DNA from: Mesaphorura yosii
Taxonomy: Eukaryota; Arthropoda; Collembola; Poduromorpha; Tullbergiidae
Length of the DNA stretch: 64,000 nt
Reading direction: 5' to 3'
Assembly (NCBI GenBank): GCA_009869945.1
Contig: WIXG01000165.1
Location: 62,001-126,000 of the forward strand
The notes under the pieces: model-generated
The model's database searches: none
The model's input: only the letters and a program-made list of their open reading frames with translations
Told to the model about the DNA's origin: nothing
Position numbers and translations under genes: made by a program
In this document: positions 2,639-38,649 of the stretch, in pieces
Layout of the letters: the number at the start of each line of letters is the position of its first letter
Position numbering within the stretch: position 1 is the first letter of the stretch

Positions 2639-5545
2639 GCAGCCAATACAATTCGATTGCAGGGTGTTGATTACGTCCTCAACCCGGCCGTCTGGCTCAA
2701 CGCCTCTGCCATCTCAAAAGACAACTCGACATTCGCATTCACCACACTTCAAAGAAACAGATCACAACAGTTTTTTGTAAACTTTTTTTCCCGACAACGT
2801 CTGGGTCTAATTAATCCTTTGACAGGTCGAATCATCGAAGTGTGAATTCTTTTTGCGAATTCACGGCACCTGTGGGCTGATAACAGATCGACTCTACTTT
2901 GAAGGAAGAATGGTGAACAAATGCTGCTCCAACTGCGACATCAACATCAGCATTGCGATTCCTTCCGGTTTCACGACTCCGGCTACGACAGCACCGAATT
3001 TGCCAGCACCTGCAACAAACACGGGCATTGCAGATGGAGATAAAGACCGCATTCAGAATTTGAGTCGAAAGAATGCCGCAGAGGCTAACATCAAAGCCAA
3101 ATACGTGGAAAGCTTTTTACGCGGGGCTTCGGTTAGTTGAGCGCTCACTCATATTCAAAATAATGAGCCCACCCAGTTATGCATAATAATGCTTTAATGG
3201 TTTCGCAGAATCTTCACGTTTCGCACCTCGACCCACTTTTCCAAGAAGGTCACAGCCACGAGCAGCAACAGCAGCAAGCCAATTACCTGAGCGACGGCAC
3301 ACGTCGTTGTGTATCTGCCGATGCGGTCTTGCTCCCTGCATCGTCTTCCGAATACTTTTCTTCGCGTTGCTCACCGTGCGGATACACTCGCCAGGCGCCT
3401 CCGAGTCGGAACTCTGCGCACAAGACGCCGCCGATTGGGACGGATCGGGCGGAGTACGATTATCCTCCGCATGAAGGCGATCCGTTTGCCGCAGCGTACT
3501 TCCAGCACCAGCGTCGACATCAACAACACGTGCGGTCGCCCGGTGTTGGTCGAAGTTCAAGCAACCCGTATCAATCAGCAGGGGTAGCTTACAGTGGGTC
3601 TCAAGAAACTTACTTTGATGTGAGTCGAAGCGCCAAGCGATCCCGCACATGTGGCGAAGATTATATATATGGGACTAGCCTATTCATCAGTCACTTAGTG
3701 ACGAAACATATTTCACATCGAAATTCCATTGCCTTAGCCCACAGTGGCTTGTCAAAGTTCAGCACTTTGACCTTAAAAAATATAGCTTATAAACCGTGTG
3801 AAAACTCAAAAAATCCCGTTTAGATAGGGTTAAAATAGATGAAAATCATGGTTTCATATTTTTCTCAGAATTTCCACCAAAAAGCACTGGTTTTGTTTCG
3901 GGACTGTTTTCAATATTACTCTTCATTTTGGAGATTTTTGAGGTCAAAGTGCCCAACATATAATCCTTTTCCGGTAACTTCCTTTTCATCTTTCGTATTT
4001 ACAAAAAACCGAATAATCAAGATTTTTCTTTCAGTGTTATCAAAGGAAAGGGGTAGATAACAAAATATGTTCCTTTGGTGAGCTCGCCTCGTTATGACCT
4101 GAGCATAAAGTCATGAAACGGCGTGCTGCATGCACATGGGTGTGGCGGGTACATTTAAAGCGACCTCACCAACGGAAAAGCTTTTGTTATCTCCCCCTTT
4201 CCTTTGATAACACTGAAAGAAAAAGGACATTAGTACGGGAGCGTGTACGTGCATGACTCGCAGCGTGATGATTCAACTCATTTGGTTATGCGTACGGTCA
4301 GCCGTACGACACTGACACGCATATTGGGGGGGAGGCTTGTCTTTCATGTAACTGATCTGACTGATCTTTTGTCCTCTGCTGCTCTCTTCTAGCAAGTCAA
4401 CTGGCGAGGACATCCTATCCGTGAATTGCTTGGTGCCGTCATCACGTCGCAGGGATTCATCACATTTCGCCTTCGTAACAACATTTGGCTGCACATGACG
4501 GTTGACAAAGCCATACGAATTGTTAATTACGAGGTAACTCAATTTCAATTCCACTGTTTGTGGTGCATTATTACAATCTTCATTCTATTGTGCTGTCTGT
4601 GTTGTGTCACCGTAGACTAATGTAATCCTAGCACTCTCAGCCTGTGGGACAAAATCTGGCTTTAGTCATCCGTCCGGCTCCGTGTACCAGTACAGCACGC
4701 TGGATCCTGAAAGTTTAAACTCACACCACGAGCTTGGCTACGACACGCGGATCGAACTGAGCACACACGAACAGTTCGGGCCACGAAAGTATGCAAATTA
4801 TAAACCAGCCTGTAATAGTAATTTATTACGCTTTAACTGCTAATGAGTTAATTAATCGCTCTTGTTTGTTCAGGTACGCGAAAATTAGCGGCAAGGGAAT
4901 TACTTTTTCTGGTGACGATCATGCACTCATCTACGTTGTGGATCAGGCTGGAACACGTGAGCTAATAACCTAGATCTGGACTTGCAAATCCCGAAACCCG
5001 CAGCCAATTTATAGGTCGATATTCGTGAACTTTCACCAGGCAGCACAAGTGCGACGTTTTCCGACTTGACGGGTGATTTCTGCTTGCCGGTGTTTCTCGT
5101 TAATTCCACACATTCTCCAATCGCAATCAATGAATGTGCTCGACTTCTTCAAGCTGCCCAATTCTGGACGGCGCCCGACGGAACAGAAAACTGGATTATC
5201 AACGGTATTCGCATCGCGCAAGAGCCTGATGGAGGTCTTCGGTATGTTTACTTTTCATTTACGTGTCCACGAATTCAATGTTAAACAAATTGACGGTGGT
5301 ACATGCTGTCGTGTCTCATTTTAAGTGTTGCACGCGATTCACTTCGGTATCAGCTGCGCACCAACCCTTGCAAAGGAAACGGCTCAATTTCAACACCCCA
5401 CATCCACTGCACAGCCTCACTCGATGATCACCTTTTCGTCCGACGTGGTTCAAAGCGAGTTCACTTTGATGGTCGTCAGCTGATCGCAAGAAATGGTTCA
5501 CACTCAAGCGGATTCGATTTTCACAATCGCCTGAAACTCTTTTGA
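2639..5545 (+). CDS. Unrecognised multi-exon protein, 3' part of gene
   Basis: I do not recognise the family. Seven exons can be joined with every phase agreeing: 2639 (or 2663)-2776, 2826-3131, 4393-4533, 4691-4788, 4874-4956, 5040-5241 and 5326-5545, ending in TGA. Together they give about 395 residues. The 5' start is not located. The second exon is cysteine-rich (KCEF, GTCG, NKCCSNCD within about 45 residues) and then becomes Ala/Thr/Pro-rich. The later exons contain several N-x-S/T sites and a region around ITFSGDDHALIYVVDQAGT. Cysteines plus glycosylation sites suggest an extracellular protein, but no signal peptide or membrane segment is visible. Intron 2 (3132-4392) is large and holds two MITEs. 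The exon 3 to 4 join uses the acceptor at GTACCAG, chosen because it keeps phase 0; this is the weakest join. Confidence 0.45.
3757..3957. mobile_element. MITE-like palindromic element, ~201 bp
   Basis: The left end GTTCAGCACTTTGACCTTAA and the right end, read on the minus strand as GTTGGGCACTTTGACCTCAA, match over about 22 bases with three differences. The interior is AT-rich and non-coding. No clear target-site duplication is visible. It lies inside an intron of the unrecognised gene at 2639-5545. Confidence 0.55.
4023..4224. mobile_element. MITE-like palindromic element, ~202 bp
   Basis: The ends are inverted copies of TTTTTCTTTCAGTGTTATCA, and the match continues through AAAGGAAAGGGG and AGATAACAAAA, about 43 bases in all with one clear mismatch. 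The interior is short and has no ORF of note. The CAGTG start inside the repeat resembles hAT ends, but no 8-bp duplication is seen. It sits 65 bp from the previous MITE and is unrelated to it in sequence. Confidence 0.7.
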
Positions 5546-6403
5546 TGAATGATGCGTAAAAATTTGCCAAGCTAGAAGCGAACTCATTTCTTTCTTTAAT
5601 ATATGAGCAAACGCAAAGAAGATTCCTGCCATTCCCGGTTAATTCTCGATGCTATAATCACAAATTCTCACGAAGTGATGAAAGAAATAATAAAGTCGTC
5701 TAACAAGTCTGCGATGGCTAAATTTAGCTCTGCTTCAGCATTACCTTTTCTTTCTGTCATTTAACAGAGGAACTCCAGCTGAGTCCCGGAAATTGAGTGC
5801 ACTTACTTTCTTTACTCATTTATCCAGATCGGAATAAGACAAAATCAAAGACAAAGGCCGAAATTACATAGAATGCAATGCCGGAACGAAATATAATACT
5901 TCAAATGGAGTTTAAATTCTTTTACAATGGCATTAAAACATACACGCACGTGTAATCCGGAATTTAATCAAAGTTCTTCCTCTTTTGCATCTTAGTAACT
6001 TGTATTGGAATATTCGAATATTGTACCTTTCCTGTATTTGTGATGGGTTCGAATCGATTCAACTTACAGCAGCACAACGAGAAAGCGAGAAAAACCGAAT
6101 CATTTTATACGTTCTTCGGGGTGCAAAGTGAAGACATGTGGTAAGTGTACATACGCATGCATGCATTTTCGTTTCTTTCTCAAAATAAGCACTTATTTTT
6201 GTATTTCTCATTTAACTTTATTGAATAATTTCCATTCTAATCCATGACTGACTTGTACTTCTCTGCAACCTTTGCTAATCTTGTAAACATTCATTCTATT
6301 TTTAATTTGTGACCTATTTGTCTATTCTTCATTGTCTTAATTATTCATGTCCGTTCCCAACTCATCCCAGCTCAGCTCATCCCAACTCAACTCAACAATT
6401 CTG
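5546..6403. other. Intergenic, AT-rich
   Basis: This is the spacer between the unrecognised gene and the large transposon. No coding exon is seen. The last bases before the transposon are short CTCAACTC/CATCCCA direct repeats. Confidence 0.5.
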
Positions 6404-6433
6404 TACCCACGTAGCACTGAACCTACTACGGAA
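6404..6433 (+). repeat. Left terminal inverted repeat of the transposon
   Basis: Thirty bases, pairing with 13266-13295 at 29 of 30 positions. The outer TA is the probable target duplication. Confidence 0.85.
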
Positions 6434-6708
6434 AAACATAGGAGCTCAAATTGAGTAGTTGCGTTCTTCCCTGGGAAGTCGACGAAGCACCCAAATGAGT
6501 TACAAAGTAGGCGCCTGGTATTTTCCTATGAACAGACGAATGTCGTCATAGGAAGTTCCCGCGCGGAGCTACGACGAGTTACATAGTAGCTCCTACTAGA
6601 ATCTTGTGTGCCCAGTACGTAGCTCGATCGTAACTTCTAAGTAGTTAACTTAGCGGTTACTAAAATGTGTGACGTAAATGGCGGCAGGCTAATGTAAGGT
6701 TTGATAAT

Positions 6709-6731
6709 TTTATTTACGAAGTGAATTTATT
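6709..6731 (-). terminator. Candidate polyadenylation signals of the transposase/DUF4806 unit
   Basis: On the minus strand AATAAA occurs twice, at 6726-6731 and 6709-6714, about 320 bases past the stop codon of the DUF4806 gene. They are placed to end a transcript that covers both minus-strand genes. Confidence 0.4.
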
Positions 6732-7052
6732 ATAAAAATTTTACAACTTCTACAATATATCTCAGGTTCCAAGAAGATAATATTAACAAGTAAATTAATT
6801 AACAAGCGGCAGCTTTCACCAGTTGTAGATATATTGCCGATGTTACTGCCTAATTGGTTTGCAGTCTCGAAGAGGCGTACGATCAAAGCAGCAGCTGTTA
6901 ACAGAAATGGAACTTCCGATTAATTTGTATCATCACGTATTATCTTGCGAATTTTGATGGGTATTTGCTGACGACTTTTTCTCCCTGCCAAAATTGAATT
7001 ACTTAAACTAAAATCCGACTTATTTCGCGCCAAAACGTGGTTCAATTTCCAC

Positions 7053-8582
7053 TTACAATCTAACCAATCGCTCCTTGGCGTGATTTAACCATGACTTGAT
7101 AGAAGTTTCTATTTCATCTTTCGAGCTGTCTTTGTGTTTTTTATTGAGGCGCACAGCATCTAAATAAAGTTGGGTATTATCTTTAGCACGGAATGAAATA
7201 CAATGTCACGAACCTACCAGCAATTACATTATGGAATTCGTAAGTACTAAGTCCAGGCTTGCTTGATCTTCCTGTCCAGGCCAATTGTGTTGCTAAGCTA
7301 TCTGTAAATAATTCTCGTAGTAGCCGATTGGTAGCTGAAGAGAGGCTGCATCCGCCAAATGAGCCTAGATATGAAACCTGCCGAGATGAGATTCGCCGCC
7401 TCATAATACAAAATTCGAATTAAGGCTGATTAGCTTGATCCTACCAATTTTGCTTTGAATGCAGCATCTCTCTTGTACTTTTCGTTTAAATCATTTAATG
7501 CGTTCATAGAATCCAGTGGCAAACCAAAATCTATTGTTTCATTTGATTGTGGCAGGGCTCCTCCACCGTCGATTATTAAATTAAGGAGCTCGGAATGTTG
7601 TCGTTGAACGGCGTTAACCACTTTGAGGCTTGTCTTAATTTCTGCCACGTTTCTGAGAATTTCATCTAATTTTCCTAAAATTGGAATGGATATCGTTTAA
7701 TTAAGAAGCTCAGTTACTTTTAGGAAGCTGTTGTCATTATTACCTCCGTTGTCATTGGAACCGATTTGAGTGTTAACCCTTTCCAAATAAGTGTTGCGTG
7801 AATGGTGAGCCAGAACTGACTGCTTTTCCACTGTCTGTGAAGAAGGATTGGAATACTGAAGTTGAGAAGAGCGTGGAGTGCTATTCGCGGCCTGCGCTGA
7901 AGTTTGTGGTTTTACTCCAAACTCCTCGTTGTACTCTGATATATCGCTTTCGTATTCTAGTTGTTGAAAATCTTCTTCATGTTGACCCGGCTCGTTTGAG
8001 AGGGCTACATCTATTTCATGATGGTCGATGCCCACATTAATCAAGTCATTTACAGAAAATGGCGGCACAATATCAGGTACTGGGACAGCAGGAAAAGAAG
8101 GTGCAGGTGGCAAGTTAAATAGACGCTTTGCATTTTTTGGAACATCCTCATCCGAATTGTTATAGCGTTTGTTTCGGTTTCTGTTCTGGCGAAGTCTTGG
8201 CTGACTTTCTTCATCCTCGCTAAGATCCGATTGCTGTGTACTTCTAACAAGCTTCTGCCTAGCAATTGTATACGAAGCTGAAAAAATAGAAGTTAATTTG
8301 ATTCATTGAAATGTGAATGTGTTCAATTATTATGTTACCTTCAGCACCGCCCAGCTTTCTTACTGGATACTTCATCCAGCTTGGGTCTGGGCTCTGACTG
8401 TTCTTCACCCACTTGCCAAGTGTTGTATAAGATTTAATTTTGGGCCAGTAGCACTGACTTGGAGTGCACAACCAATTAACTGGGACGATCTCCACTTCGT
8501 TAGTTTCCGAGAAGATGACTACTTGGTACATCGTGCTTCTAAACACAAATTGATCGCTAAACCCAAAGGATTGTTCGACCAT
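7053..8582 (-). CDS. DUF4806-domain protein of the transposon
   Basis: Five exons join in phase: 8582-8339, 8277-7744, 7674-7445, 7377-7218 and 7159-7053, giving 424 residues. The N-terminal part has the hallmark of DUF4806 proteins, an MYQVVIFSETNEVEIVP segment followed by a tryptophan and CYWP. A middle acidic, low-complexity linker follows. The last three exons encode the DUF4806 core: LPLDSMNALNDL, SYLGSFGG, then ELFTDSLATQLAWTGR, and a basic C-terminus with WLNHAKERLVRL. The role is inferred: by analogy with the two-protein En/Spm elements it may be a DNA-binding accessory factor for the transposase. Its ATG overlaps the transposase stop by one base (TAATG), and an in-frame stop lies just upstream, so initiation depends on reinitiation or on an unseen upstream splice. 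A second Met at residue 18 is an alternative start. Confidence 0.82.
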
Positions 8583-10603
8583 TAGGTTGAATTAGAACAA
8601 GGAGTTTCATGGAGGGAGTGCAAAATTGGAAAAATCGCATATGAGTTAGGAACTATTGGTAAAGCTAAGCATTTGCAGGAAATCTCCTCGTGGCCGAAGG
8701 TAACTGCTTGCAATTGACCTGAGCATTGGAAAAGACCGAATTTCGCTGAATCTGTTGGTAGAGAATATAGGCTTTCTCGGACCCGAAATTGTTCTCCTCT
8801 GAGCAAAATGACTTTGTCCTTTTTTAAGATATTCATAATCCTGATCACTGAACTATGACGAGTGATACAATAAGCGTCCGCACCGCTCGTGGTCAACGTG
8901 AAATCAGGTAAAGCCAGTTGGTCATACTGTGAGTAACCTTGTAGTGACTTCGTTAAGGCGTCCCTATTATGTGGATTCCTACATTCTACACCGGAACTAA
9001 CTTTGGCTTGTAACAAATTGGATTTCTCTGAAATACGTCTGTGTATCTGTTGTAAAGGTGATCTGGAAGATTTTAATAGTTTTTTGAATTCACCAAGCTT
9101 ATTCTCAAACTTAAATGCGCTAAATTTGTCAAGCGGTCCGTAATTTCTAGAATCATCAGACAAATGAAGTAGCCCATGTATATTAAAGGACATTTGTGAT
9201 TTTCCATAGATAGATTGAAATGTTTGGACAAAGTACGTTAGCAAATTCTTAGCATAATCTTTGAATTTAAGATACATATCTGAGCAGAGGATACGAATTG
9301 CCAAATGCAGTGCTAAGAAGTGATGAAACACTTCTCCATCTATAATATTTTTTAAGACAACAGGACCTGTGTACAAGAGGAAAAGTCTAAACTCGGTGGC
9401 CTTCCAGCGATCAACTTCCCTCAAGCTGCGGGATTTTCTAGAAAATTCTTTGCAAATATTTGGGCAACTCGCTTCTAGTTTAAGTGATATTTCTTCCACT
9501 TGCCTATTGCTTAATTTATATCGCTTGTCTCTGCCACGAAGCCACAATAGCAGTAATTTTTTTGTTACTCCTAAGCAAACCAAATGCATATAATCATGTG
9601 GAAACTGCTCAACCATATCAATAGGAAGAGTTTCCAAAATTGAAGTTCCAACTTTGTGCGTATCTTCAGATAAATGATCTATTTCTCTTCGGAATTCTAC
9701 GTCCGTGCGCTGCTCAAAATCAATACCAGAAAACACGACTCGATTCTCCACATACTCCCCCACTATTTTGCAGGAGCCACAACTTGAATAGCCACTGTGA
9801 CCTTTGGTACACTTGATAAATGACTTAGCAGGCGCGTCGCATATGAAAGCTTCTAGGACTGCAGACCAAACTCTACCCTGCATATCAATACCGTTCTGCA
9901 AAACCGAGCTGAACTCATCAACAAACGGTGCCATTAAGTCATTTGAAGATTCAGGCTTCGTATTACCAAAGTAAATCCCAACAGGAAAGGGTTCGATCCC
10001 GCGCACATTAGAAATGCTACAAAGTATTGGCCAAAATTGTTTCCCGCTGCTCTTAGAAATTGGTAGGCCGTCTACGTTGATTTGTAAGCGTAAACTATCA
10101 CACTGCAATCTGTTCATCTTTTCTATTGCAACCTTAAGACCACGAATAAGCCCAAAATGACAATACTCCCCCGGAGTCATTTTAATAACGCTAGTCTCCC
10201 TCGGAGTCTCAAGTAGTGTGCGCCCGTCTAATGGAAGCTCAGCCTCAGGATAGTGTCTAAGTAAATGTAGCAGTGCTGATGTGGCGTTAATAGGAATATT
10301 ATGCTTTAAAGACCACTGAGCTAGATCATATTTTAAAGTATTCTTAGGTCTCAGGTTATACTCGAATTTACTATCTGTATCACTACTAATTTGAGAAACA
10401 ACTTCTTCATTTTTGTTTCGTGGGACCCGACCATATTCATCAGTATTTGCTTCCGGTGTATCTATTTCTAACAAAGGAGTGTACTCTCTAACTTCCGATT
10501 CACGAGATTCAGGCTCTAACTGATTCTGCCTCAGGATAGGGTACAAACCAATTCGTCGCTTTAACTGCGCACGAGATATCTCACTGACCTTTTTCCTATA
10601 CAT
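8582..10603 (-). CDS. CMC/EnSpm-like transposase
   Basis: A single uninterrupted frame of 673 residues. It has the features of the invertebrate transposase family related to CACTA/Mirage/Chapaev elements. There is a first acidic site in QINVDGLPISKSS followed by FWPIL. A second is in ICDAPAKSF followed by a zinc-knuckle-like C-x4-GHSGYSSCGSC. Then come DYMHLVCLGVTKKLLLLWL and a WKATEFRLFLLYTGPVVL block. A late SFNIHGLLHL ... FKFENKLGEFK block could supply the final acidic residue. The predicted job is cutting and joining at the 30-bp inverted ends. It has no introns, unlike its neighbours. It shares one base with the next gene downstream, suggesting one bicistronic transcript. The exact catalytic triad cannot be fixed without alignment. 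Confidence 0.85.
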   Translation of the reverse strand: MYRKKVSEISRAQLKRRIGLYPILRQNQLEPESRESEVREYTPLLEIDTPEANTDEYGRVPRNKNEEVVSQISSDTDSKFEYNLRPKNTLKYDLAQWSLKHNIPINATSALLHLLRHYPEAELPLDGRTLLETPRETSVIKMTPGEYCHFGLIRGLKVAIEKMNRLQCDSLRLQINVDGLPISKSSGKQFWPILCSISNVRGIEPFPVGIYFGNTKPESSNDLMAPFVDEFSSVLQNGIDMQGRVWSAVLEAFICDAPAKSFIKCTKGHSGYSSCGSCKIVGEYVENRVVFSGIDFEQRTDVEFRREIDHLSEDTHKVGTSILETLPIDMVEQFPHDYMHLVCLGVTKKLLLLWLRGRDKRYKLSNRQVEEISLKLEASCPNICKEFSRKSRSLREVDRWKATEFRLFLLYTGPVVLKNIIDGEVFHHFLALHLAIRILCSDMYLKFKDYAKNLLTYFVQTFQSIYGKSQMSFNIHGLLHLSDDSRNYGPLDKFSAFKFENKLGEFKKLLKSSRSPLQQIHRRISEKSNLLQAKVSSGVECRNPHNRDALTKSLQGYSQYDQLALPDFTLTTSGADAYCITRHSSVIRIMNILKKDKVILLRGEQFRVRESLYSLPTDSAKFGLFQCSGQLQAVTFGHEEISCKCLALPIVPNSYAIFPILHSLHETPCSNST

Positions 10604-10705
10604 TATTAATGGGTAACTGTTTACATAAAATTAGTATACTGGAGGATGTGGAGTAATGGAAAGGAATTAAAAGGAGAAGGAACAGTATTTCTCTTGAGGT
10701 CGATA

Positions 10706-11891
10706 AACCAAGCTTGATTGCATGACCTGAACTTTTTACCACTAGCTTGTAATAAGAAGAGTTTCTTGAACTTTGTGTACTACCAAGAAAAATATGTTTG
10801 TAATCTTCAGACGGTCACCCCGTTCAGCGAAGTTCTATTTAGGTTACTGAATACCAAAGAACACTCTTCTTGCAAAAGGTACCTGGAAATACAAGCACTT
10901 CAGATACGGATAAGATAATCCTTATGAATTGTATAAATAAATTACTTCATATCCGATGAATTTACAATTACTTTAATATGGGCTTCACAATCTTCATCAA
11001 GGTTCACAGTCCAGAAGGAGCAGTTGCATTAAGTTACTTTGAATCTGCAACAGTTGAATTCAAATAAGAATGCTTCTTGCTTTCGCAGATGTAATTAAAT
11101 GTTGTTTATGTTAGTAGAGCATTAAATTTAATTCTCGTGTCGTTAAACCAAGATTGATTGCTTGACACAGAACAACAAATGCCAGCTTCCTCTTATCTAT
11201 TGACTTACCGAGTAAAATATCCCAGAAGACGTTGACATGGCTGAAAGTATCTCACATGATTCACTGTCCAATAATTTGATGTCCAAATAAACATTCGTTC
11301 AGAATAATGTTATGATTCGGTGAATATTTCTTTCAGAATTCGAAACGCACACTGAATGATATCGAAAAGCGTTGAACAAATATTCGAGAAAAAAGATAAT
11401 ACAATCATCGTTGCACGTTTCATCATGAAACGATATAACATACAAAGCAGTACAGTGTACAATACGCATTTGCGAGTCCAACAGCCAGGGACAACCGCGC
11501 ATGATTTGAAATTATAAAAGTGAAAGTCCCTTCTGTACTCGAAATTGTACAGTGAACTGAGCATCATCATACCATCATCAATCATAAAAATTAAATACTC
11601 AATTTTCGCTGTACTTTATTACTGGACAACAATGGATATTCAGGTACTAAATATTTATTATTGAATATGACATGTTACGAAGTACATTCGCATGCTAATA
11701 TATTTTAACTTTGTCGACAGGAGAATCTACTGAATTGGGCCTTATCGGCTACTATGGATCAACGAGTAGATTTCCTTCACAAGTACCTGCAAGTTATCCC
11801 TGCATCGGAATTGGATAAGGTTATCAAAAAGGTAAGACACCCCCCTCTCCCAAGCAGTTGTGATCGAAGAACCAAGATTGACTGCTTGACC
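10706..11891 (+). repeat. Three dispersed copies of a ~22-bp motif inside the transposon
   Basis: The motif ACCAAGATTGATTGCTTGAC, with one or two changes per copy, occurs at about 10708-10725, 11148-11165 and 11871-11890. All copies are in the same orientation, between the transposase start and the third exon of the exonuclease gene. The last copy ends next to a polypyrimidine tract and splice acceptor. Function is unknown; a binding site for an element-encoded protein is one possibility. Confidence 0.6.
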
Positions 11892-12940
11892 ACTTTTTTC
11901 AGGCACAAGGAGCAAAGAAACGTGACAGGAGGAATGTCATCGGTAACGACAAGGAAAGAGTTCAATCATTGAAGAAGAAATTGAAATCAGCAACCGAGTC
12001 AGCATTACGCGATCAAATTCTACACGAAATAGAAGAAGCACAAGAAAGACGACGAGTTTATGAACAGTCAAAATCGAAAGATGCTGGCCAAAAACTAGGT
12101 CAAGGTCAATCCACTTCCAAGGGGGCACAAGCAGTCTCTTCGGAGGCTCTGGCTGTCCCTGCGGAGGATTGGAAAGTTTTTCCGATGAACAACTACGTTG
12201 CTGGAACCTGCTTCGAAAAATATTTCCCAACAAACTACGTCTTCTTGGATTGTGAGCTGGTTTTGAAACATACGGGCGAATACGAATGTGGCTCTGTTGC
12301 TGTATTAGATCATAATAGGAAGACCATTTACAAGACACGAGTTTATCATCCTGCGAATAGCTTCAATGTTAATTACCATACCATAAGTTGCAACGGTTTT
12401 CACTATGATTCCTTGGCCAATGAAAAATATCCCAGACTAGACGAAGTTTCGGACAGAGTAGAGAAATTAATACACAGAAAGCTGGTCATCTTAATTGGTG
12501 GCGATAATGGGAAGGCAAACTCATACAACGATCTTATATCTCTGAAGCTAGACGCAAGCAACATTACAGTCTACAACTTGCATTTTCACTTTTTTAAAAC
12601 TACCATCAAGAAGAACGTGTTTTTGCCCATGGGAGACGAAGAATCTGCATTTATCATTGAACCAATAAGCCTGCGAAGATTGTCCATGAAGTACTTTGAT
12701 GTCGACATGCAATCTGTAGCGCACGATCCGGAAACTGATGCAAAATATACTGCAAAGTTATTCCAGGAAATCCTGCCCTTACAATTGAAACCGGGGTTAA
12801 AAGAATTCGTGGAATATGACATGAAAAATATGTGCGCTTACGAAGAAAGGTATGCAGCTTTTGATGACGATCCCAAAATGATCGACTTTAATTCTAAAAT
12901 ACGAGCAGCAGGGAAGAGAAAAGCCCCACGAAAGAATTAA
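11632..12940 (+). CDS. DEDDh 3'-5' exonuclease-like protein carried by the transposon
   Basis: Three exons join in phase: 11632-11643 (MDIQ), 11721-11831 and 11903-12940, giving 386 residues. After a basic, coiled N-terminal region of about 140 residues comes an RNase H-fold exonuclease domain. Exo I is VFLDCELVL with D157 and E159. The Exo II region is around GGDNGKANSYNDLISL. Exo III is VAHDPETDAKYTAKLF, where H315 and D320 have the H-x4-D spacing of the DEDDh class (REXO4/ISG20-like, DnaQ fold). The C-terminus is lysine/arginine-rich. It is transcribed opposite to the transposase and lies fully between the inverted ends. Predicted role: nuclease acting on DNA or RNA ends, possibly during excision repair. 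Whether it is a standard part of this transposon family or a captured host gene cannot be told from one copy. Confidence 0.8.
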
Positions 12941-13016
12941 ATTATGTACGGGCTTTCATTAAACGTGAAAGTTAATTTATTATTGCAAATTATATACGTA
13001 AATTGTGCACTTTTGA

Positions 13017-13022
13017 AATAAA
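13017..13022 (+). terminator. Polyadenylation signal AATAAA for the exonuclease gene
   Basis: AATAAA lies 77 bases past the stop codon and before the right inverted repeat, so the transcript would end inside the element. Confidence 0.6.
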
Positions 13023-13265
13023 ACAACACAAGTTATAGAAATTGGTTCATGTTTCTTGCGTCATCATCGGACATTTTACACAACAGAAATGAAACCAAGT
13101 TGAAGTCTCATTAGAGTGTGTTTCGTAGTGACTAAGGTGTTGGAGCTCCAAATTACGTACTTGGTACATGCAAAATGTTTGGGGCCCAAGCGCATATTCG
13201 GTAGCTTCGACAGAGCTTCCGCGGAGTTACAAAGCATATTGCGTACGTTTGGAGCTAAATCGTAG

Positions 13266-13295
13266 TTCCATAGTAGGTTCAGTGCTACGTGGGTA
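13266..13295 (-). repeat. Right terminal inverted repeat of the transposon
   Basis: Thirty bases complementary to the left end at 6404-6433. The outer TA is the probable target duplication. It lands in a TATATAAA string. Confidence 0.85.
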
Positions 13296-13734: not shown

Positions 13735-16600
13735 GAACTGGAAGTGGAACTCAAAATCGAAAAGGAAGTGGGGGAACTGGAACTGAGAACTGAGTTCCAG
13801 CAGTAGGAACTGAGCTCCCAATTCAGTTCCAGTTTCAAAGAGACATTCAAAGCGCAGGATTTGAAGTATTCCATTGTGTAATCTCATGGGCTAGCTGAGT
13901 AATGCAATTTCACTTCTGATTTCATTTTATAAAGATTCAGTTCCTCTTTTGAACTATTCTGATAACCAGTTCAAGCACGTGTTTTACCTTTTAGCTGTGG
14001 TAAATTTTAATTTAAAAAAGCTGTCACCAAAGTCGGATCGTCAGCAAAACTTGAACACCTGGCACCAAAGCAATTAAAAGATGAACAGTCAAGAGATCAG
14101 GGAATGTTTGGATTTGGACAACTCCTGTTCCGAGACACCAGGCGGTATAAGTTCGCCTTGAACCAATCTTATCAAAATTTGTTCAACATTATTACATTTC
14201 CTTTAATATTTGTCCAGTTGGTGCAGTCGTTGAACAATCAGTTCGGGCTCAGGGCCCATCAAGTATCGGAAGAGGATCTGATCAAAGAGGCATGCCAAGA
14301 ATATTGCGTTTCTTCTGTGAGCTTAATGTGCTTGTGACCTCGTTCAATATGTTATCCTAATTGTAGGATCAGACGAAGTTCCACATCCCGCAACTACTCC
14401 CGCCGTGCCAGTCAGGAATCTACGTCAATCAATCATGTCGAGTAACTTTCGTCTTGACAAATCTGCTCCGTCACCGTTATCAAATTGGAAACAAAGGCCA
14501 CCTGGACGACAAGTATCCTCAAATGTTTGGGAATACTTTACTTACGACTCCAAATCGGATGCATCAGTTTGTAAAGTTGATGGATGCCAGAAGCGGCTCG
14601 CCGGAAAGAATGCATCAAATCTTAAAAAGCATCTAAAGGCTTCGCATGAGGATATTTATAGGATTGTTGTCAACTTCGATCTGGGCAACCGCATTGAAGT
14701 AGACAAGCCTCGCCAAGTTAAGCCAAATTCTTCGAAGCAACTCAATATTGACATGTCTGGGAAATTAGTTGGCACAAAATACGAAAACGATCACCCCAAG
14801 CAGCTTAGATTCAACAAACAGCTGGCGATTTGCTTCGGCGCGAACCCGATTTCGACCAGTTTCATCGCTAACAACGACTTTCGTATGTGCATTGAAATTG
14901 CAGACTCACGCTTACAAGTTCAGTCACGACCGGCGTTGGAGAAACACATCGACCAACTTCTAATTGAAATGAGAGAAATTGCCGTTAAAAAATTAGATTC
15001 AGCCCGACGAATTTGCGTCTCTGCTGACATCTGGACCAAGAAAGGAATGTCATCAAGCTATCTGGGCATCATGGCTTCGTTTTACGATGTCACCACAGAT
15101 TCCAAAAATATTGTGCTTGCCGTTCGTAAATTCGAGTCGACACATCATACTGCACTGAGCATTATCAAAGAAATGGACGAAGCACTACTCCAATATCAAA
15201 TTCCGCAGCACAAGTTCTGGAAAGTTATCACAGATTCGGGGTCGAATATGGTTTGCGCATTTCGGGACAGTTCTGTGTTAGACGAAGAACATGAATGCAT
15301 GGAAGAAAATGAAGCCGGTCGCACTGAAATCTCGCACAACTACTTCCGCTACAATTGGCTTTCTTGCTTCATTCATACTTTGCTGCTTTGTCTTAAGAAA
15401 TTTGATGCACGGAAATTGTTTGATAACCTCATAATCAAGCTGAAGACCTTGGTTCAAAAATTCTCGTCCTCGCAAGTGCTTACCGGTGAATTACTAAAGT
15501 TATCGGGGCTGAAGCTAGTTCTGTTTTCAAATACAAGATGGAATACAGTGTTCTTGGTTATTCAGCGACTGGTGTTGGTCAAGAACAGTGTGATTGCTGT
15601 TCTGAACGAAGCTGGAAAACAAAAGTACAATCTCAGCACCAAGGAATTGAACTTAATGGAGGACCTCAAAGAATTTCTGGCACCATTTAATAAATACACT
15701 GACATGTGCAGCACGGAGGGATCGCGCTCATTCTCGGAAGTAATAATGATACTCAAACAACTTAAGGATCATCTTCGGAAATTCAGCAAGATCAGGAATT
15801 TCGTCACGGTGTCGAATGAAATTTTGAAAGATATAGAGACTCGGACACCTGTTCCACAGCACCGGCGAAAGGCAGCTGGAAGGAGTGTACTTGGCTGCAA
15901 CATTTCTCCATCCACGGTACAGAATTGGACTAACAGCAACAGAAACAGATGCGGCTAGATCTTACATCATGTCCTCAGATTTCCACATGGCGAATGATAA
16001 AGTTGCTGGAGCTGCACGTGGCGCAGAGACTAACAAAGAAGTCCCAGTAAAAAAGAGAAAATTCGAGTTTCTCGAGCAAATTTCAAGGCAAACCAACAAC
16101 ACCGACCGATTTGGCCCCGGAACTTGACCTATATCTAAGCAACAAAGCTTTCGATACTGACGATGATAAGTTTGACCCGTGGAATTTTTGGCAGCTCCAA
16201 AAGTGTGCATTCCCTAATTTGTCACCGTTCGCCTTGGATGTTCTTTCGATTCCATTGTCAATTGGTGCGGTGGAGCGAACTTTCTCATTCGCTGGACTGG
16301 CTACTCAAGGGCGCCGAAACTGCTTGGAGATCATTTGGAGCGAGAAGTTTTACTGAACAAAAATAAGCACTTGATTATGTAATGTGCTGGTAAAGTAGAT
16401 CGGCTATTGTAGTATACTTTCATGAAACGGTTTTAGAAAAAAAAAATCTCTAAAAATTCCATAAATGGTTCTGAGAACTCAGTTCTAGTATAGTATCGGA
16501 ACTGACATTTGTTCATGGGACTGGAACTGGGGCTGGAATTAACGTTAAGATCTGGGAACTGACTGGAACTGGAACTAAGTAGTTGGAACTGATACAGCAC
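13735..16600 (+). mobile_element. Decayed hAT-family transposon (approximate limits)
   Basis: A hAT transposase pseudogene lies between two zones dense in GGAACTGG/CAGTTCC words, roughly 13735-13850 and 16460-16600. Such short repeats in both orientations near the ends are usual for hAT subterminal regions. I could not fix the exact inverted ends or an 8-bp target duplication, so the limits are approximate. Confidence 0.6.
14081..16382 (+). pseudogene. hAT transposase with BED zinc finger, frameshifted
   Basis: The reading begins MNSQEIRECLDLDNSC at 14081. Exons 14081-14144, 14218-14316 and from 14373 join in phase. A BED zinc finger (VCKVDGCQKRLAGK ... LKKHLKASH, C2H2 type) is followed by the hAT catalytic core, with ICVSADIWTKKGMSSSYLGI and a conserved NTRWNT. 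Three frame breaks then follow, near 15885, 16111-16127 and 16315. Each is needed to recover family motifs: LAATFLHPRY, then LSIPLSIGAVERTFSFAG, then LLGDHLEREVLLNKN. The C-terminal dimerisation segment is thus present but split over three frames. The copy is therefore probably inactive, though sequencing indels cannot be ruled out for any one break. Confidence 0.8.
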
Positions 16601-36085: not shown

Positions 36086-37747
36086 TTAACCAGCCAGCGC
36101 AAGCATCCACGCGGCGATGTGACTGACTAAAAACCCAACAATGTTCCTTGTAGCATTTTGCTGGTCGCCGTCATTGGCAGTTACGGGAATCGATTGGGGA
36201 GTCCGAAAATAATTATCGGGGTCGTATGTCTGCTTGATTGCAACCAGCCGGTCCAGATTTGATCCGTAATACCGCTGCAAGTAGTCGGGCATCTCCTCAT
36301 CCACATAATTCTGGTACGACTCAGTGTGTCTTAACACGGCGCCCGCCAAATCGAAGAAGCCTTGCATCCAATCGAACGCCCGTGCTCGGTTTACGTGAAT
36401 CTCTCCTGTCTGTCCTGATCTGGATCCTGGCGCTGTCGGTCCATCGTAAACGATGTGAACAGAGTACCCATTGCGGCCGCGGTGCACGTACGACGTTTCG
36501 TCCATTCTAATCTCATTCACTCGACCACCAGCAGCGAAAAAGTCAACAAAGACGTTCTGTGGAGCCTCCTGCAGTTCTGCATATAATTTCCAGGCTTGCG
36601 CCTGGCCTGTGCTGTTTTCAAGTGTGTGATTCACGAAGAAGGACTTGACTTTGTAATGCGTCGATCGAAAGGCTGTCGGGAATTCGTATACGTCGGGGAT
36701 TTCGGTGAACCCAAAGAGTGTGGATTTTAGCAAGAATTCCGCGTATGAGAGCGACTGGATTGAAGATTCATTCGTTGCTGGAAGCGTAGCGAATATTCGA
36801 TGGACCTGACTCTCTTCCACCGAAAGCTGGTCGTTGCTGAACTCGTACAGCCGCAGAAATAACTTAGAACCGTTGAAATGCAAAGCTGAATTCAGTGTAT
36901 TTGATGGAGCCGCCATGAAAAGCGCTTGCCACTTGAAGAACAGTTGAGGAAATGCATCCAAGTCGTACCATCGCAGGCCATAAATAACGACGGCTGGTGG
37001 GTCATACACTTTGAATGTGAATTTGGTAACAATTCCAAACGGCCCGGCCCCAGCGCCACGCAGTGCCCAAAAGAGATCTGAACTTGTCGTGTCGTTCGCA
37101 CTCACAAGCCGTCCATTCGCATTCACCATGTCCATTTTGAGAATGTTGTCCAGCGTGAGTCCATGTAATCGAGCCAGGGCTCCGTCACCGCCGCCCAATG
37201 CGCTTGATATTCCCACGTAAGGGGAACCGCCAAGAGGAAGGATTTTTCTGGCTCGAGTCCACAGCGTCCACGCCACAAATCCAATTCGTGCTCCGGCATC
37301 AACCTGACACGTGTTCGTCGCCATGTCGATTATTATCTTGTCGAGGCTTTCCAGATCGAGCACGAGAGAGTTGCTATCTCCAAAAGAGTACTTTGTGAAT
37401 GAATGACCGCCGTTTCTTGGAACAATTCTTATTTGCGTCTCGCGCCCACACTGCACGGCGGCCTGAATTTCGTCGACCGACCCGGGCTTGAAGTATCCCA
37501 GCGGGTGGATCGTCAGTCCGTGCTGATTCCATTGGTAGTTCAGTTCAGCGTACTCGGAATGAGTTCGGAGCACAATTCTGCTGCGATTTACTCCAGCGTC
37601 TTCGAGGCAAGTTGCAATTTTAGAGTCAAGGCTAAGCTGGCCGGACGAAGACGCAGGCGAGGCGTCGATGGCGATGAAGAGGAAGATTAAGCTGACAGTT
37701 TTGAGAATGACAAAACCAAAAAACTTAACAAGATTTGAAGATTTCAT
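36086..37747 (-). CDS. Secreted, probably GPI-anchored berberine-bridge-type FAD oxidase
   Basis: An intronless gene of 553 residues starting at the ATG at 37747, which gives a clean signal peptide (hydrophobic residues 8-28). The FAD-binding PP-loop domain includes RNGGHSF, with H115 as the covalent 8-alpha-histidyl FAD site, then LGGGDGALARLHGLTLDNI and WALRGAGAGPFGIVTKFTF. The C-terminal BBE domain ends YYGSNLDRLVAIKQTYDPDN followed by YFRTPQSIP. The second covalent site, usually Cys in a GxCP motif, is Ser here (GGSP, S175), so FAD should be held by one bond. The last 18 residues are hydrophobic after a polar stretch, as in GPI-anchor signals. Relatives in fungi, plants and bacteria oxidise sugars, alkaloids or monolignols; the substrate here is unknown. 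Lack of introns among intron-rich neighbours suggests lateral transfer. Confidence 0.85.
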   Translation of the reverse strand: MKSSNLVKFFGFVILKTVSLIFLFIAIDASPASSSGQLSLDSKIATCLEDAGVNRSRIVLRTHSEYAELNYQWNQHGLTIHPLGYFKPGSVDEIQAAVQCGRETQIRIVPRNGGHSFTKYSFGDSNSLVLDLESLDKIIIDMATNTCQVDAGARIGFVAWTLWTRARKILPLGGSPYVGISSALGGGDGALARLHGLTLDNILKMDMVNANGRLVSANDTTSSDLFWALRGAGAGPFGIVTKFTFKVYDPPAVVIYGLRWYDLDAFPQLFFKWQALFMAAPSNTLNSALHFNGSKLFLRLYEFSNDQLSVEESQVHRIFATLPATNESSIQSLSYAEFLLKSTLFGFTEIPDVYEFPTAFRSTHYKVKSFFVNHTLENSTGQAQAWKLYAELQEAPQNVFVDFFAAGGRVNEIRMDETSYVHRGRNGYSVHIVYDGPTAPGSRSGQTGEIHVNRARAFDWMQGFFDLAGAVLRHTESYQNYVDEEMPDYLQRYYGSNLDRLVAIKQTYDPDNYFRTPQSIPVTANDGDQQNATRNIVGFLVSHIAAWMLALAG

Positions 37748-38649
37748 CGCGGATTGCGAGAATCGTTGATCAGTCTTCAGTTTAACCTTAAAATTAATCA
37801 ATAAAAATTAACCAAGTACTTGACTCTTGAAGCAGATTAAAAAATTAACCGTACCTTTTGCAGAGAAGAGAATTAATAGCTCGAAGATACAGCGCAGTAT
37901 TTCAGAAATCACTGCCACGGTCATGATCGATTGTAGATAGTAAGAGGCAAGCAACTCTTCCCTTCTTCGTCGAGTCGACGTGACAAATCGAATCGAGTTT
38001 CAAGTTCACTCAGAATGGAATGGTCGAATGAAGGAATGGACGCGGAGGAACGTGCTTTTTGACACGACACGCGGTCGTTCGGTTACGACGAGGCTGATTA
38101 TCTTATCAATGATAAATTGCGTACCTGTTTAACAATAATGCAATGCAACGCATTGTAGAACGTGCTTATTGCTTAGTGTTAGTGCTTGCTCGCTCTTGCT
38201 CTTGTCACGCCATGCTTGCGGATGTGTCGATTACCTCGATTGCGTAACCTTTACCTTTTAAATACGTACCTGCCTGTGCTGTGCTGATCGTAAGAACCCA
38301 ATTTATTATATTCAAAAGCTTATTCTAAGAATTAGGTTTTTACAGCTAATTTACGTTACAAATTATTGCAATTAGTGGGTTTTGCGCATCGGTCATTAAA
38401 CTCGTGCGCAAAATTCCTGCGAACTACGCGAAATGGTCATGGTCACGGCCATTCATCAATTTGTTATTCATTGGACAATTGGACTTCGACCTGGACTCAC
38501 TCATTCGCTCAATGACTGGCAAAATTTTGACGGTAAACAAAAAGTGGGATGCTCCTTTTTTAACGAATTTCTCGAGTAATATTACAATCATGACATCAGT
38601 TATTTATCAAAAGCGTAAGCTACTCTTAGAATATATACAACGTGGTCCA
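37748..38649. other. Shared 5' region of the oxidase and 3' flank of the silk-like gene
   Basis: Non-coding. It holds the promoter of the oxidase gene, in which I recognise no specific element. The TTGATTAA frame extending the oxidase upstream of 37747 has no ATG and is not coding. Confidence 0.4.

What the first reader, a model, noticed from the sequence alone, without database searches (positions are those of the whole stretch)
6404..13295. Three-protein DNA transposon: CMC-like transposase, DUF4806 protein and a DEDDh exonuclease
The 30-bp inverted ends match at 29 of 30 positions and enclose three intact genes. CMC elements commonly encode a transposase and sometimes a DNA-binding partner. 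A DEDDh exonuclease with all key acidic residues and the H-x4-D motif is not, to my knowledge, a described cargo. A nuclease could trim excision ends or act in element mobility.
Basis: partly seen in the sequence, partly recalled or inferred. Interest (0 to 1): 0.85.

Follow-up and report, generated by a model that had tools for sequence, protein, structure and literature searches.

The report
Transposon family carrying a shared exonuclease
A eukaryote's genome, probably an animal's, holds a jumping-DNA family that carries, besides its cutting enzyme, a gene for an RNA/DNA-trimming enzyme, and a relative of that gene sits inside an unrelated kind of jumping DNA in the same genome, which suggests that transposons pass this helper between them.

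Summary
Window 6404-13295 is a DNA transposon (ends 29 of 30) with three real genes: a CMC/Mirage-type transposase (predicted core closest to RAG1/Transib), a spliced DUF4806 protein (Pfam 1.5e-7) and a spliced DEDDh exonuclease. The outer TA pairs are a 2-bp target duplication. It is not a recent capture: a copy on contig C748 has all three genes in the same order, 59% (transposase) and 68% (exonuclease) identical, with changes concentrated at third codon positions. Against universal linkage, C784 lacks the exonuclease, and 11 of 13 contigs with this exonuclease type show no transposase beside it. Unexpectedly, a relative of the exonuclease, N-terminal piece included, lies inside a complete hAT transposon with a perfect 8-bp duplication, and beside hAT transposase at two more loci. 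Profile and fold place it with ISG20/SDN1/PAN2 3'-5' exonucleases. Exonuclease cargo is known (KolobokD, Dada); ten searches of the held library found none in CMC or hAT elements. The substrate is unproven; I favour a role outside cut-and-paste chemistry, perhaps against RNA silencing (about 40%).

The parts
6404..6405 (.). 2-bp target-site duplication (TA), left
   Evidence: Matches 13294-13295; identical 2-bp flanks in 4 of 5 elements read at both ends
6406..6433 (+). left terminal inverted repeat (CCCACGTAGCACTGAACCTACTA...), DUF4806 side
   Evidence: 29 of 30 identity of ends incl. the TA
7183..8582 (-). DUF4806 gene; proposed exons 8339-8582, 7744-8277, 7445-7674, 7183-7377 (start uncertain; the ATG at 8582 overlaps the transposase stop, an arrangement not seen in C748)
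   Evidence: splice model; PF16064 E 1.5e-7 over cut-off (with a slightly different second junction and a shorter end); matches on C748, C784, C729, C677 and C807
8582..10603 (-). CMC/Mirage-type DDE transposase, 673 aa, single exon; proposed catalytic D178, D256, E500; C275xxC278, H476xxxH480; BAH-like fold at about residues 538-656
11632..12940 (+). DEDDh exonuclease gene, 386 aa; exons 11632-11643, 11721-11831, 11903-12940; N-terminal helical module (about aa 5-50) and DEDDh domain (about aa 150-335)
   Evidence: (same three exons readable in C748)
10706..10726 (+). 21-bp direct repeat, copy 1 (upstream of transposase ATG)
11146..11166 (+). 21-bp direct repeat, copy 2 (between the divergent genes)
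11870..11890 (+). 21-bp direct repeat, copy 3 (last intron of the exonuclease gene; also in that intron in C748, and just upstream of the exonuclease match on C303)
13266..13293 (-). right terminal inverted repeat, exonuclease side
13294..13295 (.). 2-bp target-site duplication (TA), right

Best explanation
SHOWN: an autonomous-type DNA transposon of the CMC/Mirage group with a 2-bp target duplication. The two complete copies found both hold transposase + DUF4806 protein + DEDDh exonuclease. A homologous exonuclease lies inside hAT transposons of the same genome. It resembles the ISG20/ISG20L2/SDN1/PAN2 group and has kept its active-site residues. INFERRED: the three genes are the ancestral set; the transposase excises and inserts the element by RAG1/Transib-type chemistry; the DUF4806 protein is a co-factor of unknown role. 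The exonuclease acts in trans on 3' ends of nucleic acid in a way that helps elements with different transposases alike. The reading I favour (about 40%) is degradation of RNA, such as the small RNAs or transcripts on which silencing rests, comparable with the TET/JBP genes that fungal transposons of several superfamilies share and that are thought to counter silencing. End-trimming of DNA intermediates is next (about 30%).
Against: Only two loci have all three genes. C784 has transposase and DUF4806 but no exonuclease in the stretch read. 11 of 13 contigs with the CMC-type exonuclease show no transposase match beside it, although three of these matches (C615, C98, C836) lie near a contig edge. 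One hAT relative (C728, 75% identical, at a contig edge) has no exonuclease hit. No transcript, enzyme assay or second species was available. Nothing here measures the substrate: the nearest structures are RNases by their titles, but fold does not decide RNA against DNA. The exonuclease model is of modest confidence (mean pLDDT 62.7), and the window transposase alone matches no CMC family in Pfam.
Confidence: 0.62

Rival explanations
1. The exonuclease processes DNA: it trims 3' ends exposed during excision or gap repair and so helps cut-and-paste directly, as the authors propose for KolobokD and Dada.
For: Published reading for two other exonuclease-bearing groups (passages). It lies in the same element as the transposase and looks constrained. 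RNase T and TREX2 structures in complex with DNA also match the fold, more weakly (E 1.7e-3 and 3.6e-3).
Against: The best matches are ISG20, SDN1, PAN2 and ISG20L2, RNases by their titles. The gene occurs with two transposase types that leave different duplications (2 bp and 8 bp), so the DNA ends probably differ.
Confidence: 0.3
2. Chance capture: a host exonuclease gene was picked up once, long ago, and rides as a passenger without function.
For: A transposase-bearing relative lacks it (C784), and the profile found none (E up to 1) in the flanks held (at most 1.5 kb a side) of the distant transposase loci L036-L061. A single old capture is not excluded as the origin.
Against: Same three-exon gene in two loci at 68% identity with third-position bias. 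Active-site residues kept in both the CMC and the divergent type: D251 and H315 in 7 of 7, D157 and E159 in 5 of 5 that cover them, D320 in 6 of 7. No near-identical host gene.
Confidence: 0.08
3. The CMC family got the gene by a hAT element inserting into it (or the reverse), that is, a nested insertion fixed later, rather than exchange of a useful helper.
For: Both types co-occur in one genome and share N-terminal piece and nuclease domain.
Against: A tblastn of the C956 hAT C-terminal exon over all loci then held gave no hit in the C165 or C748 loci (E up to 0.01). The two exonuclease types are 22-28% identical in the alignments and form separate clades (support 100), so any event is old.
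Confidence: 0.15
4. The three genes are neighbours by chance and the element is just a transposase-DUF4806 unit.
For: One locus without exonuclease (C784).
Against: Exonuclease inside matching ends at C165 and C748, and within a complete small element with 2-bp duplication at C5.
Confidence: 0.02

Closest known systems
Mirage group of CMC (EnSpm/CACTA-Mirage-Chapaev) DNA transposons
   Same: DDE transposase with C(2)C and H(3)H; relatives hit DUF1258 (described as the Mirage group in PMC3985635, passages) and Transposase_21; 2-bp target duplication (that Mirage makes 2 bp is my recollection; PMC12730594 gives 2-5 bp for the wider clade); RAG1/Transib-like core
   Different: Ends begin CCC rather than CA; carries DUF4806 and exonuclease genes; the window protein alone hits neither Pfam family
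KolobokD DNA transposons (PMC9587614)
   Same: DNA transposon with an accessory DEDDh exonuclease, in animals
   Different: Kolobok transposase; its exonuclease is described as similar to exuperantia, TREX and ERI1, whereas this one is closest to ISG20/SDN1/PAN2; no sharing between superfamilies is described in the passages read
Dada transposons of Laccaria and Ectocarpus (PMC3706591)
   Same: Transposon-borne 3'-5' exonuclease
   Different: DEDDy type, built into the transposase, another superfamily, a fungus and an alga
TET/JBP-bearing transposons of fungi (PMC12730594)
   Same: One accessory enzyme shared among many superfamilies, hAT and EnSpm included
   Different: A dioxygenase acting on methylated DNA, in fungi
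ISG20 / SDN1 / PAN2 exonucleases
   Same: Fold and DEDDh residues
   Different: Host genes; 13-24% identity in the structure alignments; the N-terminal helical part of the transposon protein lay outside the aligned range

Membership tests
CMC (EnSpm/Mirage/Chapaev) transposons | DDE transposase with C(2)C and H(3-4)H between second D and last E (PMC12730594) | tested here: met
   D178, D256, C275, C278, H476, H480, E500 identical in 12 of 12
CMC (EnSpm/Mirage/Chapaev) transposons | 2-5 bp target duplication | tested here: met
   2 bp, identical in 4 of 5 elements read at both ends
CMC (EnSpm/Mirage/Chapaev) transposons | RAG1/Transib-like fold | tested here: met
   [not shown]
CMC (EnSpm/Mirage/Chapaev) transposons | 5'-CA..TG-3' termini ('in most cases') | tested here: not met
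   Termini are CCC...GGG; the source says most cases, so this feature does not define the group strictly
Mirage (DUF1258) subgroup | membership of PF06869 | tested here: inconclusive
   8 of 12 aligned sequences match at E up to 1 (best 3.9e-6), the window protein does not
DUF4806 proteins | PF16064 above curated cut-off | tested here: met
   32 bits against 25, E 1.5e-7
DEDDh 3'-5' exonucleases, ISG20/REXO group | D-x-E, D, H-x4-D | tested here: met
DEDDh 3'-5' exonucleases, ISG20/REXO group | fold and profile similarity | tested here: met
DEDDh 3'-5' exonucleases, ISG20/REXO group | 3'-5' exonuclease activity | not testable with these tools
   no assay
hAT transposons (C956 element) | hAT dimerisation domain, 8-bp duplication, short TIR | tested here: met
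   PF05699 3.8e-10 over cut-off; CGGGCGGG on both sides; TIR 8 of 9
KolobokD | Kolobok transposase | tested here: not met
   transposase is CMC-type; no Kolobok model was run as such

The most novel reading that the evidence does not exclude
A transposon-borne ISG20-like exonuclease is a tradable counter-silencing gene: CMC and hAT elements of one genome exchange it, it protects whatever transposon expresses it, and short elements made of little more than the exonuclease between CMC-type ends have spread as selfish helpers.
Probability: 0.25. Interest if true: 0.85.

Novelty: new variant of a known kind. Interest (0 to 1): 0.62.

Why it matters
If true, an accessory nuclease gene is shared across DNA transposon superfamilies, probably in an animal, as reported for TET/JBP genes in fungi. 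That makes a concrete question testable: what does an exonuclease do for transposons whose transposases and target duplications differ? If the substrate is small RNA, this would be a transposon-encoded suppressor of silencing. It would also warn annotators that such genes are not host exonucleases.

Tried and rejected
Recent host-gene capture was tested by a whole-genome search with the exonuclease: the next best match is 71% (C748), and no near-identical single copy appeared. Pfam on the single transposase and the single exonuclease gave nothing useful; relatives and a profile were needed. Pfam family PF16064 searched over the genome found nothing, but no control genome rang either, so this is no evidence of absence. 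The TIR-core pattern with up to 2 mismatches is only a little above its control genome-wide (21 + 30 matches against 19 + 17), so I relied on ends next to element sequence. dS could not be computed by either method tried (NG86 returned no value, YN00 failed), which I read as saturation; codon-position differences were used instead. For C883 neither of the two candidate end pairs was convincing. A PDB sequence-profile search with the transposase alignment found nothing at E up to 1. The BAH-like C-terminal fold has no sequence support.

Full report
1. What is there. The window is part of contig C165 of an unnamed 93-Mb genome in 1127 contigs. That it is an animal is my guess from gene and transposon content, not a test. 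The ends at 6404 and 13295 match at 29 of 30 bases. On the minus strand lie a 673-aa transposase frame and, after it, a spliced DUF4806 gene. On the plus strand, diverging from them, lies a three-exon exonuclease gene of 386 codons.

2. Other copies. The own-genome protein searches returned 27 match rows for the exonuclease and 48 for the transposase. On C748, ends at 7699 and 14420 enclose a 6722-bp element with all three genes in the same order and orientation relative to each other. Transposase identity to the window copy is 59% over 657 aa and exonuclease identity 68% over 345 aa. Differences per codon position are .34/.25/.62 and .26/.20/.59. These copies are old relatives, not recent duplicates, and both proteins look constrained.

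3. Incomplete copies, for and against. C784 has a left end, transposase and DUF4806, but the stretch where the exonuclease should be, read to C784:20400, shows weak fragments of another transposase and DUF4806 gene and no exonuclease. C729 begins inside the transposase, so it cannot tell. 18 contigs hold exonuclease matches: 13 of the CMC type and 5 of a divergent type. Of the 13, only C165 and C748 have a transposase match beside the gene; the other 11 do not (C303 has a distant transposase some 64 kb away; C615, C98 and C836 matches lie near a contig edge). Two of the 11 are short elements with both ends read: C5 (about 1.44 kb, matching AT duplication) and C116 (about 1.39 kb, flanks not matching). 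Most of these copies are partial or hold stops. That the exonuclease is kept may only reflect that it lies near one end.

4. Target duplication. Outside CCC...GGG the two flanking bases agree at both ends in 4 of 5 elements: C165 TA, C748 TA, C492 (about 0.7 kb) TT, C5 AT; C116 has TT and AT.

7. A relative of the exonuclease in hAT transposons. The five divergent matches are C956, C883, C734, C705 and C294. C956 lies in an element from 5396 to 9926 with CGGGCGGG on both sides and ends CAGGATTGT/CAGGGTTGT. Inside are a hAT transposase (593-aa main frame; PF05699 3.8e-10 above its cut-off and DUF659 1.7e-6 below its cut-off) and the exonuclease, convergent. C734 is a second, separately inserted copy, 91% identical over 1861 bp, with one end present. 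C883 has a hAT transposase 49% identical in the C-terminal part, with the exonuclease beside it; its ends were not found. C705 and C294 lie near contig starts, and no transposase was identified in the flanks held. The two exonuclease types are 22-28% identical in the alignments, but match at E 8e-19, share an N-terminal module (E 4e-8), and the CMC type separates from the rest, C294 included, with support 100 (ten sequences, unrooted). Against a fixed link: hAT relative C728 (75%, contig edge) gave no exonuclease match, and C709 (48%) lies near a contig start.

8. How it works. Shown: gene set, linkage at two loci, constraint, fold, sharing. Inferred: RAG1/Transib-type cutting by the transposase, and a trans-acting helper role for the exonuclease. 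For RNA as substrate: the nearest structures are RNases by title, and the two kinds of host transposon differ in transposase and target duplication. For DNA: the published proposals for KolobokD and Dada, and weaker fold matches to DNA-bound RNase T and TREX2. I put RNA-directed counter-silencing at about 0.4, DNA-end processing at about 0.3, and the rest open.

9. Novelty. Otherwise I saw listings, some of them capped, and passages of PMC9587614, PMC3706591, PMC12730594, PMC3985635 and PMC4455052. They gave exonuclease cargo in KolobokD and Dada, but none in CMC or hAT elements, and no exonuclease shared between superfamilies. The library is open-access only and, as far as I know, does not hold Repbase reports, so a description there remains possible. 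I file it as a new variant of a known kind: a transposon accessory gene.

Noticed in passing
window 10706-10726, 11146-11166, 11870-11890: A 21-bp direct repeat in one orientation, three copies in the element (expected 0.00 in shuffles of the window). Of 7 genome-wide matches with up to 3 mismatches (3 for the reversed control pattern), 3 are here, 1 each in C748 and C303 beside the exonuclease, 1 upstream of the related C771 transposase and 1 elsewhere, C128. Could be a protein-binding or splicing signal.
   Followed up: partly
[not shown]
   Followed up: partly
window 8580-8584: Transposase stop and an in-frame DUF4806 ATG overlap as TAATG; C748 has a different arrangement there, so this may be incidental.
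   Followed up: partly
window 14327-15958: 543-aa open frame with a BED zinc finger (PF02892, 4.4e-5), hAT-like by eye, just outside the element; no meaningful similarity to the exonuclease-bearing hAT transposase.
   Followed up: partly
window 36089-37807, minus strand: Berberine-bridge-like FAD oxidase (FAD_binding_4 1.1e-20, BBE 7.4e-18), a type I recall as commoner in plants, fungi and bacteria; possible horizontal gain.
   Followed up: no
G000:C492:44919-45633 (L002): About 0.7-kb element with the same kind of ends and a TT/TT 2-bp duplication; its coding content was not examined.
   Followed up: partly
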